Shown here one piece after another: positions 3,224-16,081 of a stretch of DNA of 64,000 bases; within the stretch, counting starts at the first letter, position 1, and each line of letters starts with the position of its first letter. Position numbers and translations under genes: made by a program. The notes under the pieces are model-generated. The model was not told where the DNA came from. It ran no database searches and worked only from the letters and a program-made list of their open reading frames with translations. The stretch comes from Magnetospirillum sp. (GTDB taxonomy: Bacteria > Pseudomonadota > Alphaproteobacteria > CACIAM-22H2), in contig JAPZUA010000001.1 of assembly GCA_027532905.1 (NCBI GenBank), positions 62,001 to 126,000 of the forward strand, written 5' to 3'.

Positions 3224-4042
3224 TCAGCCGTAGCGGCCAGTGATGTAGCCTTGCGTGCGCTCGTCGCGCGGATTCGTGAAAATATTGGCCGTATCGTCTT
3301 CCTCGACCAGCGTGCCGAGATGGAAGAAAGCCGTGCGTTGGGAAACGCGCGCGGCTTGCTGCATATTGTGGGTGACGATGACGATCGTGAACTTTTCCTT
3401 GAGCTCGTCGATGAGTTCTTCGACATGCGCCGTTGCGATCGGGTCGAGTGCGGAGCACGGCTCGTCCATCAGGATCACTTCCGGCGAGACGGCGATTGCG
3501 CGCGCGATGCACAGGCGTTGCTGCTGGCCGCCCGACAGACCCGTGCCCGAATCCAGCAACCGGTCCTTAACTTCGTCCCACAGTCCCGCGCCGCGCAGCG
3601 AGTGCTCGACGATCTCGTCGAACTCCTGCTTGGTGGTTGCAAGTCCATGAATCCTGGGGCCGTAGACGATGTTATCGTAGATCGACTTCGGGAACGGATT
3701 GGCCTTCTGGAATACCATGCCCACGCGTGCGCGCAGCTGCACAACGTCGATCGCCTTGTCGTAGATATCGAGGTTGTCGAGCTTGATCTCGCCTGCAACC
3801 CGGCACGAATCGATCGTGTCGTTCATGCGGTTGAGGCAGCGCAGAAACGTCGATTTTCCGCATCCCGACGGACCGATGAAGGCGGTCACCTGATGCTCGC
3901 GAATGTCGATATTGACCTTCTTGAGCGCGTGCTTCTCGCCGTAGAACACATCGACGCCACGAGCCACGACTTTGGCTTTGTGACCATCGGCCGCAGCAGC
4001 TATGGGCATCTGTTTTGCTTCAACAGTCTGTGTGTTGGTCAT
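3224..4042 (-). CDS. pstB: Phosphate ABC transporter ATP-binding protein PstB
   Basis: 272-aa ATPase that energises high-affinity phosphate import. Walker [10 protein letters not shown] is at 57-65, the Q-loop at Q112, signature LSGGQQQR at 169-176, and Walker B ILMDEP at 190-195 followed by CSALDPIAT, a hallmark of PstB. The N-terminal 20 residues are a variable extension. It lies 3 bp after pstA and 10 bp before phoU in one operon. Confidence 0.97.
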
Positions 4043-12427: not shown

Positions 12428-13342
<915 letters not shown>

Positions 13343-13527
13343 GGACCCGCCCTGCTTTCGCGCGCCGGCTTCGCGCCAGCATTGACGCCTTTTTGCGCGC
13401 GCCTTCGACCGTCGTCAATTGGTATTAAAATTAGACATGCAAGACGCAAAATCCGAACGAAACGGCACAGACAGGAATTTAGAGCAGAAACACTTGCATT
13501 GGCAATCGCGTCAACGATAATTGATCC

Positions 13528-14961
13528 ATGGATATATCATCACTGCCGTCCGCCGCGTCCGCGTCGCTCGTACTGCCGACGCCTGCGATACTCGTCGTCG
13601 AGGATTCCGAAGCGACTGCTGCACTTTACGTTGAGTATTTGCGGAGTGCGAACTACCGCGTCCGAACCGCAAGCACGCTTGCCGCCGCCCAGAAACTGCT
13701 GGCGGTCGAAGTGTTCGGCGCCGTGGTGCTCGACCTCAATCTGCCCGACGGCAACGGGCTCGACATGCTGCGCGACATCCGCCGGCAGGGGCTGCCGACC
13801 GAAACGATGGTCGTGACGGCCACCGGCACGCTGGCCGTGGCGGTCGAAGCGATGCGCGAGGGCGCCTTCGACTTCATCGTCAAACCCTTTGCCCGCGACC
13901 GCCTGCTCGTGACCGTGCGCAACGCGCTCGAGCGGCTGCGCTTGCGCGCCGTCGTCGATACGTACGAATCCGATTTTGCCAGAAATCGGTATTTCGGGCT
14001 TGTTGGCGCTTCGCTTGCGATGCAGCGCGTCTACCGGATCATCGACAGCGCGGCGCCGAGCCAGGCGCCGATCTACATCAGCGGCGAAAGCGGGACCGGC
14101 AAGCAGCTCTGCGCCGAGGCGATCCATCGCCGCTCGCCGCGCGCCGAGGGCCCGTTCGTGGCCGTGTCGTGCTCGGCGCAGCCGCGCGACGTGCTCGAGC
14201 GCGCGCTTTTCGGCGCCGAAGGTTCGGGTCCCGGCGCCCCGGGACAAGGCGCCATCGCCCAGGCCCATGGCGGCACCTTGCTGCTGCGCGAAGTCGGCGA
14301 CATGGACCCCGCCGTGCAGGCGCGCTTGCTGCAGTTCCTGGCGACCGGCAGCCTCTCTTCCGGCGAAAGCCCGGACGTACGCATCGTCTGCAGTTCGACA
14401 CGCGATCCGCGTGCCGATGCGCGGCTCGGGCGCATCCGCGAGGATCTGTTTTTCCGGCTCCATGTGATCCCGATCCAGATGCCGCCGGTGCGCGAACGCG
14501 AAGACGACGGCGTGCTTCTGGCCCACCACACGCTGCTGCGGTTCGCGCAGGAAGAAGGCAAAGCCTTTCGCGAGATCGCCGCCGACGCGGCCTACGCGAT
14601 CCGCCGCTATGCGTGGCCGGGCAATGTGCGCGAGATCGAAAACGCGATGCGCTCGGTCGTGGTGCTGCATGCCGGCGAAACGGTTCGCTTGGACATGCTG
14701 CCCGCCCATGTGGCGCATGCGGGCCCGAGCGGCATCAGCGACGGCCTCGATGTCGGCTCGGCGGGGTCGGTGCCGCCGCAAGGTGCGTCCGACGCCAAAC
14801 CCAGCATCCGCCCGCTGTGGATCGTCGAGCGCGAGATCATCGAAGCCGCGATCGCCGATTGCGACGGCAATATTCCGCGCGCCGCCGCGTTCTTGGAAAT
14901 CAGCCCGTCGACGATCTACCGCAAAAAACAGGCCTGGGACGTGGTCGACCGCAAAGCGTAA
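13528..14961 (+). CDS. NtrC-type response regulator lacking the GAFTGA motif
   Basis: 477 aa with three domains. The receiver (about 19-135) is intact: E25/D26, phosphoacceptor D69 in VVLDLNL, K119 in VKPF. The AAA+ domain (about 150-395) keeps Walker A GESGTGK (186-192), an R-finger type segment REDLFFRLHV (304-313) and WPGNVREIENAMR. However, the sigma54-contact loop GAFTGA is replaced by a shorter Gly/Pro stretch (GAEGSGPGAPGQGA, 229-242), and the Walker B acidic pair reads RE instead of DE (R254, E255). A Fis-type helix-turn-helix occupies about 434-470. It therefore probably binds DNA and responds to phosphorylation but does not activate sigma54 polymerase. No histidine kinase is adjacent. 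Divergent from liv and upstream of rpoH. Confidence 0.9.
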   Translation: MDISSLPSAASASLVLPTPAILVVEDSEATAALYVEYLRSANYRVRTASTLAAAQKLLAVEVFGAVVLDLNLPDGNGLDMLRDIRRQGLPTETMVVTATGTLAVAVEAMREGAFDFIVKPFARDRLLVTVRNALERLRLRAVVDTYESDFARNRYFGLVGASLAMQRVYRIIDSAAPSQAPIYISGESGTGKQLCAEAIHRRSPRAEGPFVAVSCSAQPRDVLERALFGAEGSGPGAPGQGAIAQAHGGTLLLREVGDMDPAVQARLLQFLATGSLSSGESPDVRIVCSSTRDPRADARLGRIREDLFFRLHVIPIQMPPVREREDDGVLLAHHTLLRFAQEEGKAFREIAADAAYAIRRYAWPGNVREIENAMRSVVVLHAGETVRLDMLPAHVAHAGPSGISDGLDVGSAGSVPPQGASDAKPSIRPLWIVEREIIEAAIADCDGNIPRAAAFLEISPSTIYRKKQAWDVVDRKA

Positions 14962-15058: not shown

Positions 15059-15087
15059 CTTGATTAATTTTTAGCACGGCCTTATTT
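15059..15087 (+). promoter_or_regulatory. Candidate heat-shock type promoter of rpoH
   Basis: CTTGATT at 15059-15065, a 14-nt spacer, and CCTTATTT at 15080-15087 resemble the sigma32 layout (CTTGAAA, 13-15 nt, CCCCATNT). It would give a 5' UTR of about 60 nt before the rpoH ATG. Called from pattern only. Confidence 0.4.
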
Positions 15088-15154: not shown

Positions 15155-16081
15155 ATGTCGTACGCAGCTACTTCGGCCGATTTGCCGGCCCTTTCGATCC
15201 CGCAGAATTCGCCGCGTGCCGAGCTCGGCCGCTACATGGCCGAGATCCAGCGCTTTCCGCTGCTCGAGCCCGAGGAAGAACGCGCCCTTGGCCGCGCCTG
15301 GCGCGACAACCAAGACGTCGCCGCTGCCCACCGCCTCGTCACCAGCCATCTGCGGCTTGTGGTCAAGATGGCGTGGAAATATCGCGGCTACGGCCTGCCG
15401 CTCCCGGACCTGATTGCCGAGGGCAATATCGGCCTCATGCATGCGGTCAAACGCTTCGACCCCGAGCGGGGCGTGCGCCTGTCGACCTACGCCATGTGGT
15501 GGATCAAGGCGTCGATCCAGGAGTTCGTGCTGTCGTCGTGGTCGATGGTCACGATCGGCACGGCCGTGGCGCGCAAGAAGCTCCTGTTCAGCCTCACCTC
15601 GGTCAAGCGCAAGCTCGGCATCGACACCGACACGCGCCTGAGCCAGGCCGACATTTCCAAGATCGCGAAGGCGACGAGCCTCGGCGAAAACGACGTCGTC
15701 GAGATCGAAGTCGCCGCGCGCGGCGCCATCGTTCCGCTCGACGCGCCCGTGCAGACCGGCAAGGGCGACATGCTGCCGAGCGAAATCGCCGATCCGAATG
15801 CCGACGTCGAAGCCGACGTGCTGGCGAGCGACGAAAAACGCTGGCAGCGCGGCCTCGTGGACCAAGCGCTCGAAACGCTCGACGTGCGCGAACGCGAGAT
15901 CGTGCGCGCCCGCAACCTGCGCGAAGAGCCCGAAACGCTCGAAGACCTGTCCAAGCGCTTCGGCGTGAGCCGCGAACGCGTGCGCCAGCTCGAAGAGCGC
16001 GCGATCGCCAAGCTGCAAGCCCGTACACGCGAGCTTGCGCGCTCGGCCGAGACGGCCCCCCGCCTCGCCGCCTACGCCTGA
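15155..16081 (+). CDS. rpoH: RNA polymerase sigma factor RpoH (sigma32)
   Basis: 308-aa group 3-like sigma factor for heat-shock genes. Region 2 reads LPDLIAEGNIGLMHAV and STYAMWWIKASIQEFVL; the RpoH box RKKLLFSLTSVKRKLG distinguishes it from RpoD and RpoS; region 4 contains SKRFGVSRERVRQLEERAI. The open frame extends 18 codons upstream, but the ATG of MSYAATSADLP follows AAGGAGG by 7 nt and is the better start. It is monocistronic, 193 bp after the NtrC-like gene. Many alphaproteobacteria carry two rpoH copies, so this may be one of a pair. Confidence 0.93.
   Translation: MSYAATSADLPALSIPQNSPRAELGRYMAEIQRFPLLEPEEERALGRAWRDNQDVAAAHRLVTSHLRLVVKMAWKYRGYGLPLPDLIAEGNIGLMHAVKRFDPERGVRLSTYAMWWIKASIQEFVLSSWSMVTIGTAVARKKLLFSLTSVKRKLGIDTDTRLSQADISKIAKATSLGENDVVEIEVAARGAIVPLDAPVQTGKGDMLPSEIADPNADVEADVLASDEKRWQRGLVDQALETLDVREREIVRARNLREEPETLEDLSKRFGVSRERVRQLEERAIAKLQARTRELARSAETAPRLAAYA

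What the first reader, a model, noticed from the sequence alone, without database searches (positions are those of the whole stretch)
13528..14961. NtrC-type regulator with GAFTGA deleted and Walker B aspartate replaced by arginine
Seen: the receiver domain and Fis-type HTH are intact, and Walker A is normal, but the sigma54-contact loop is a Gly/Pro stretch (residues 229-242) and the Walker B pair is R254-E255 instead of D-E. Known: GAFTGA is required to remodel sigma54 holoenzyme; Rhodobacter capsulatus NtrC lacks it and works with sigma70. Inference: this protein is a phosphorylation-switched DNA-binding regulator that may bind but not hydrolyse ATP and acts with sigma70 or sigma32. The gene is divergent from liv and just upstream of rpoH, which are candidate targets.
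Basis: partly seen in the sequence, partly recalled or inferred. Interest (0 to 1): 0.62.

Follow-up and report, generated by a model that had tools for sequence, protein, structure and literature searches.

The report
LuxO-like regulator with dead motor
One genus of Alphaproteobacteria keeps, under strong selection, a copy of a LuxO-type gene regulator whose ATP-burning, sigma54-contacting engine has been dismantled while its phosphorylation switch and DNA-binding end stay intact, so it probably now works as a plain switch-controlled DNA-binding protein, like a handful of known sigma54-independent relatives.

Summary
ORF 13528-14961 encodes a 477-residue receiver/AAA+/Fis-HTH protein. Its L1 loop lacks GAFTGA, and Walker B reads R254-E255 instead of D-E. 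It belongs to the LuxO branch, not NtrC. All 11 genomes of the genus carry it, and all lack the GAFTGA threonine, Walker B aspartate, glutamate-switch Asn and sensor-I Asn. The 76 LuxO-like homologues examined outside this clade keep these catalytic residues, including paralogues that coexist with the degenerate copy in three of the same genomes. Species form a graded series: GAFP/NGA with Walker B E-E, then shortened loop with E-D, then Q-E or R-E. Receiver, Walker A lysine, RxDxxxR, sensor-II Arg and HTH are kept, and dN/dS is about 0.01-0.14 between close relatives. So it is neither an error nor a pseudogene. The genome has sigma54.

Best reading: a duplicated LuxO-type activator that lost sigma54 remodelling and ATP hydrolysis and became a phospho-switched, probably ATP-binding regulator of sigma70-type promoters. 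The divergent liv operon, adjacent in 11/11 genomes, is the best target guess. Sigma32 partnership and rpoH as target are not supported. New variant of a known kind (RcNtrC, Caulobacter NtrC, HupR, TyrR, VpsR, NtrX). Nothing was tested experimentally.

The parts
13528..14961 (+). degenerate LuxO-type response regulator, 477 aa
   Evidence: open frame; Pfam domains; best NCBIfam model LuxO, 443.5 bits, under its 800 cut-off; orthologue in all 11 genomes of the genus; purifying selection
13588..13917 (+). receiver domain, residues 21-130; D69 phospho-acceptor, with E25, D26, T97, K119 kept
   Evidence: (invariant columns)
13999..14478 (+). AAA+ (Sigma54_activat) domain, residues 158-317
   Evidence: predicted fold matches LuxO 5ep0 / 5ep1
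14101..14106 (+). Walker A K192 kept; next residue Q193 replaces the E that is invariant in intact homologues (PspF E43)
14167..14169 (+). S214 replaces the glutamate-switch Asn (PspF N64)
   Evidence: N in the intact homologues (frequency 1.0), S in 11/11 of the genus clade
14215..14247 (+). L1 loop AEGSGPGAPGQ (residues 230-240) where GAFTGA should be
   Evidence: 11 residues here, 14 in 76/76 intact homologues
14287..14292 (+). Walker B R254-E255 (PspF D107-E108)
   Evidence: D-E in the intact homologues (frequency 1.0)
14350..14373 (+). L2 (pre-sensor I) loop SLSSGESP, 8 residues instead of 13
   Evidence: 13 in 76/76 intact homologues
14398..14400 (+). sensor I Asn replaced by T291
14437..14457 (+). 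RxDxxxR (R304, D306, R310) arginine-finger motif kept
14629..14631 (+). sensor II arginine R368 kept
14815..14925 (+). Fis-type HTH (HTH_8), residues 430-466; GNIPRAA...SPSTIYRK
   Evidence: no conserved HTH position changed in most of the clade
13494..13505 (.). TTGC-N4-GCAA palindrome overlapping the putative -35 boxes of the divergent promoters; candidate operator only
   Evidence: conserved block in several genus members; minus-strand promoter-like site shares it
13516..13521 (+). putative sigma70-type -10 box GATAAT, 16 bases after TTGCAT, 6 bases before the ATG
   Evidence: read from the sequence and the aligned block; consensus only
12428..13342 (-). livH, first gene of the divergent branched-chain amino acid ABC transporter operon; candidate target
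   Evidence: divergent neighbour in 11/11 genomes
15155..16081 (+). rpoH-type sigma factor downstream; neighbour, not shown to be a target
   Evidence: sigma-32 subfamily NF005143, 311 bits, over cut-off 241

Best explanation
The gene is one copy of a LuxO-type sigma54 activator that was duplicated in or before the ancestor of this genus. This copy lost the machinery for remodelling sigma54-RNA polymerase and for hydrolysing ATP. Its receiver, Walker A lysine, trans arginines, sensor II and Fis-type HTH remain under selection. It most likely works as a phosphorylation-switched oligomeric DNA-binding protein that may bind ATP as a structural or allosteric ligand without turning it over. It would repress or activate sigma70-type promoters, probably its own and that of the divergent liv transporter operon. 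Shown by sequence: the losses, their restriction to this clade among the homologues examined, the retained domains, the selection and the synteny. Inferred: absence of ATPase and sigma54 activity, ATP binding, sigma70 action and the targets.
For: All 11 orthologues lack the GAFTGA Thr, Walker B Asp and glutamate-switch Asn, and all have lost the sensor-I Asn; the 76 intact LuxO-like homologues keep D-E and both Asn and share one L1 and one L2 length. Of 104 positions conserved in at least 95% of intact homologues, those changed in most clade members number 15 of 77 in AAA+, 1 of 20 in the receiver and 0 of 7 in the HTH. In PspF, D107A cuts ATPase Vmax from 39.5 to 0.23 per min with Km nearly unchanged (300 vs 250 uM); N64Q and E43A fall to about 1.5 and 1.4 per min; K42A has no detectable activity and R168 variants have Km above 3,000 uM (PMC3419264). 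The clade loses D107 and N64 (and E43 in 4 of 11) and keeps K42 and RxDxxxR. dN/dS between the closest relatives is 0.01-0.02 in the receiver and 0.12-0.14 in the AAA+ core, against 0.05-0.06 in the AAA+ core of the intact paralogues. The degenerate clade is monophyletic (100/100) and sister to the intact genus paralogues (94/92). Divergent liv adjacency is kept in 11/11. No sigma54 -24/-12 match with up to one mismatch lies between window positions 4020 and 16817. RcNtrC is reported to need ATP binding but not hydrolysis at sigma70 promoters (PMC10274813).
Against: No biochemical, expression or binding data exist. The architecture would also fit a pure repressor. The candidate operator (TTGC-N4-GCAA) has a spacer one base shorter than the LuxO site (TTGC-N5-GCAA), is not well conserved across the whole genus, and similar sequences elsewhere in the genome lie mostly within ORFs. 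The kinase next to the intact paralogue has no close match in G000, G002, G003, G004, G006, G007 or G008, so the phospho-donor is unknown.
Confidence: 0.72

Rival explanations
1. A dominant-negative or hetero-oligomeric partner: the dead protomer mixes with an intact LuxO-type protein and tunes its sigma54 activation.
For: Degenerate and intact copies coexist in G005, G009 and G010. The trans arginines that serve a neighbour's ATP site are kept. PspF rings with a subset of defective subunits can still act (PMC4132715).
Against: The window's own genome and six others of the genus have no detected intact LuxO-type paralogue (some of these genomes are incomplete). In G001 only the kinase of the pair was seen, so it is undecided. 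Conservation is just as strong where no partner was found.
Confidence: 0.1
2. An ATP-independent phospho-dimer: the AAA+ domain is only a dimerisation scaffold, and neither ATP binding nor hexamer formation matters, as reported for VpsR.
For: VpsR, a GAFTGA-less bEBP at sigma70 promoters, is reported not to need ATP (cited in PMC10274813). Relaxed constraint in AAA+.
Against: Walker A Lys, RxDxxxR and sensor II Arg are invariant across the clade, which a mere scaffold would not require.
Confidence: 0.25
3. A decaying pseudogene on its way out.
For: Progressive loss of catalytic motifs and Gly-rich loops.
Against: Present in 11/11 genomes, open wherever the contig allows, dN/dS well below 1 in every domain, and conserved synteny.
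Confidence: 0.03
4. A still sigma54-dependent activator using a non-canonical loop.
For: sigma54 is present in the genome and in 22 of 23 family members. Three genus members keep GAFPGA or GAFNGA.
Against: The loop is shortened in 8 of 11; glutamate switch, Walker B and sensor I are lost together. A genome survey found about 110 homologues with deviating GAFTGA, with Thr-to-Pro at position 4 the preferred change, and treats such homologues as having lost sigma54 contact (PMC3162934).
Confidence: 0.05

Closest known systems
LuxO (quorum-sensing sigma54 activator; PDB 5ep0)
   Same: Best sequence and structural relative. Same three-domain order. HTH residues matching LuxO S423, I425, Y426, R427, K428 are identical when aligned by the alanines at 414-415 (PMC11407668).
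   Different: No GAFTGA, no Walker B Asp, no glutamate-switch Asn, no sensor-I Asn; no adjacent kinase; NCBIfam score 443.5 under the LuxO cut-off of 800.
Rhodobacter capsulatus NtrC
   Same: Alphaproteobacterial bEBP with the L1 loop deleted that acts with sigma70 and needs ATP binding, not hydrolysis (as reported in PMC10274813).
   Different: NtrC lineage, not LuxO. Whether its Walker B is intact was not tested here.
Caulobacter crescentus NtrC
   Same: Loss of GAFTGA by an eight-residue L1 deletion, sigma70 promoters; the nearest orthologues of the window protein are also 8 residues shorter in L1.
   Different: Keeps and needs the Walker A Lys and Walker B Asp (K178, D235) for ammonium use.
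Vibrio cholerae VpsR
   Same: GAFTGA-less bEBP at sigma70 promoters, reported not to need ATP. Its structure is among the fold matches (7v2b).
   Different: Uses c-di-GMP, and its conserved Asp senses phosphate rather than requiring phosphorylation. c-di-GMP binding here is untested.
HupR, TyrR, DhaR
   Same: bEBP homologues that lost GAFTGA and are sigma70 dependent (PMC3162934).
   Different: Different lineages and, for TyrR and DhaR, different input domains (own knowledge).
NtrX (Alphaproteobacteria)
   Same: Receiver/AAA+/HTH protein without GAFTGA; this genome's own NtrX-like protein (L003) also lacks it.
   Different: L003 keeps Walker B D-E and the Asn of the glutamate switch.

Membership tests
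sigma54 activator (bEBP, functional) | GAFTGA loop for sigma54 contact | tested here: not met
   AEGSGPGAPGQ in its place
sigma54 activator (bEBP, functional) | Walker B Asp-Glu, glutamate-switch Asn, sensor-I Asn for ATP hydrolysis | tested here: not met
   R-E, S214, T291
sigma54 activator (bEBP, functional) | Walker A Lys, RxDxxxR, sensor II Arg | tested here: met
   K192, R304/D306/R310, R368
LuxO lineage (by descent) | groups with LuxO-type proteins rather than NtrC or NtrX | tested here: met
LuxO equivalog (same function) | NCBIfam NF041946 curated cut-off 800 bits | tested here: not met
   443.5 bits; the intact genus paralogue also falls short at 574
GAFTGA-less sigma70-acting bEBP homologues | receiver and HTH kept, L1 GAFTGA lost | tested here: met
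GAFTGA-less sigma70-acting bEBP homologues | regulates sigma70 promoters | not testable with these tools
   needs in vitro transcription or ChIP-seq
response regulator | phospho-acceptor Asp with acidic pocket, Thr and Lys | tested here: met
   E25, D26, D69, T97, K119 invariant

The most novel reading that the evidence does not exclude
One genus preserves a stepwise path by which a sigma54-remodelling AAA+ motor became an ATP-sensing or purely structural transcription factor. The glutamate-switch Asn, Walker B Asp, sensor-I Asn and GAFTGA Thr were lost in the common ancestor, and the L1 loop was shortened later, perhaps more than once, while intact sister copies survive beside it in some species.
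Probability: 0.4. Interest if true: 0.58.

Novelty: new variant of a known kind. Interest (0 to 1): 0.42.

Why it matters
Loss of the sigma54 loop is known in several bEBP lineages. Here it occurs in the LuxO lineage together with loss of the hydrolysis site, with intermediate states and intact sister paralogues still present in one genus. That is a natural series for asking in which order a molecular motor can be turned into a plain transcription factor, and whether ATP binding without hydrolysis is enough for it. It also warns that annotation of this protein as a sigma-54-dependent regulator would probably be wrong.

Tried and rejected
Sequencing error and pseudogene: rejected by independent genomes and dN/dS. 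rpoH as target or sigma32 partnership: no support. Candidate operator TTGC-N4-GCAA: 32 near matches in the genome against 3 for the reversed control, but most sites inspected lie inside long ORFs, so the excess is probably coding sequence and the motif stays a weak lead; its spacer also differs from LuxO's by one base. Cognate kinase: the hybrid kinase next to the intact paralogue has close matches only in G005, G001, G009 and G010, so the donor in this genome is unknown. The single genome-contig scan was wasted by my giving the wrong strand; it still named G008's record as an unclassified Rhodospirillales MAG. The window's genome was not available as a file, so no genome-wide footprinting was done. 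The VpsR and RcNtrC primary papers were not held; their results are cited second-hand. The structure model is moderate (mean pLDDT 75, pTM 0.48) and is weakest within the AAA+ core at residues 234-236, so nothing is argued from loop geometry.

Full report
What is there. The ORF at 13528-14961 (+) encodes 477 residues with a receiver domain, a Sigma54_activat AAA+ domain, its lid, and a Fis-type HTH. The best family model is LuxO, far below its equivalog cut-off (443.5 against 800 bits), and the best solved relative is LuxO, PDB 5ep0. A structure prediction (mean pLDDT 75) finds LuxO, NtrX and NtrC1 as nearest folds. So it is LuxO-like, not NtrC-like. The genome has one sigma54 gene and four strong Sigma54_activat proteins: one NtrC-like, one NtrX-like, one with GAFTGA but a poorly matching N-terminal domain (L002), and this one.

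The observation. Walker A is GESGTGK, but L1 is AEGSGPGAPGQ and Walker B is R254-E255. PspF numbering was assigned by motif. Kept are K192, R304-x-D306-xxx-R310, R368, the receiver pocket E25/D26/D69/T97/K119 and the HTH.

Comparison. All 11 genomes of the genus hold an orthologue. Homologues were collected from the family and from 385 genomes of the class, and 76 LuxO-like proteins outside the clade were aligned. All 76 have 14 residues in L1 and 13 in L2, and Walker B D-E, the switch Asn and the sensor-I Asn have frequency 1.0 among them. In the genus clade: G006, G007 and G008 have GAFPGA or GAFNGA with E-E; G001, G005, G009 and G010 have a 7-residue L1 with E-D; G004 has a 6-residue L1 with Q-E; G000, G003 and G002 have 11-, 6- and 6-residue L1 with R-E. 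G005, G009 and G010 also carry an intact paralogue. In G005 it lies directly behind a hybrid kinase gene, and that kinase has close matches only in G001, G005, G009 and G010.

History. The degenerate proteins form one clade (100/100), sister to the intact genus paralogues (94/92), with a longer stem (0.74 against 0.40). The switch Asn, sensor-I Asn, GAFTGA Thr and Walker B Asp are gone in all 11, so their loss is most simply placed in the common ancestor, with loop shortening later. Whether L1 was shortened once or more is unresolved (94/72 for the branch joining the two shortened groups).

Selection. Between the closest relatives dN/dS is 0.01-0.02 in the receiver, 0.12-0.14 in the AAA+ core and 0-0.13 in the HTH; the AAA+ core of the intact paralogues shows 0.05-0.06 (Nei-Gojobori estimates). 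The protein is conserved and presumably in use, with the AAA+ core partly relaxed. Of 104 nearly invariant positions, those changed in most clade members number 15 of 77 in AAA+, 1 of 20 in the receiver and 0 of 7 in the HTH.

Mechanism. In PspF, D107A, N64Q and E43A strongly cut the ATPase rate (0.23, 1.5 and 1.37 against 39.5 per min) while Km stays within about threefold (300, 500 and 750 against 250 uM), whereas K42A has no detectable activity and R168 variants have Km of 3,000 uM or more (PMC3419264). The clade loses the first kind of position and keeps the second. The simplest inference is nucleotide binding without hydrolysis. Precedents differ: RcNtrC needs ATP binding only, VpsR needs no ATP, Caulobacter NtrC needs Walker B (all as reported in PMC10274813). 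TyrR, DhaR and HupR are further sigma70-dependent GAFTGA-less homologues, and Thr-to-Pro at position 4 is the preferred deviation (PMC3162934), as seen in G008.

Targets. The divergent liv operon is adjacent in 11/11 genomes. In G006 the liv genes are only 55-67% identical to the window's although the regulator and the genes downstream are 68-94%, and no closer second livH was found in that incomplete genome. This fits replacement in place and is mild evidence for a kept link, though in-place recombination alone would explain it. The intergenic region holds TTGCATTGGCAA at 13494-13505, overlapping putative -35 boxes in both directions; it is a weak operator candidate. No sigma54 -24/-12 match with at most one mismatch lies near the locus. 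rpoH follows in 10/10 genomes where visible, but has its own conserved upstream block and in G005 and G006 is separated by a reverse-strand acetyltransferase-like gene.

Verdict. The feature is real, of a known kind, and unusual in degree: a new variant of the known sigma54-independent bEBP homologues, with a useful graded series inside one genus. Mechanism confidence is 0.72; the liv target guess is lower, about 0.4.

Noticed in passing
window 15059-15087: Upstream of rpoH, CTTGAT-N16-CTTATTT and flanking bases are strongly conserved in the 10 genus genomes seen. It resembles the alphaproteobacterial RpoH promoter consensus as I recall it, suggesting rpoH self-control.
   Followed up: partly
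window 13516-13530: The putative -10 box ends only 6 bases before the regulator's ATG, with similar closeness in G006 and G008, which would give a leaderless mRNA.
   Followed up: no
L077:3829-9316: In G006 the liv operon at this locus is far more divergent (55-67%) than the neighbouring regulator and downstream genes, as if replaced in place by another liv operon.
   Followed up: partly
L003: The genome's NtrX-like protein also lacks GAFTGA but keeps Walker B D-E.
   Followed up: no
L079:10371-11336 and L077:11179-11709: Acetyltransferase-like gene on the reverse strand between the regulator and rpoH: 321 aa in G005, 176 aa in G006; absent in the window. Family named by eye, not by a search.
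   Followed up: no
L084:5411-9323: Hybrid histidine kinase directly upstream of an intact LuxO-like regulator: a LuxQ/LuxO-like pair in Alphaproteobacteria.
   Followed up: partly
window 1-64000: Ten sigma54-promoter-like matches with one mismatch against a chance mean of 3, none near this gene; not examined.
   Followed up: no
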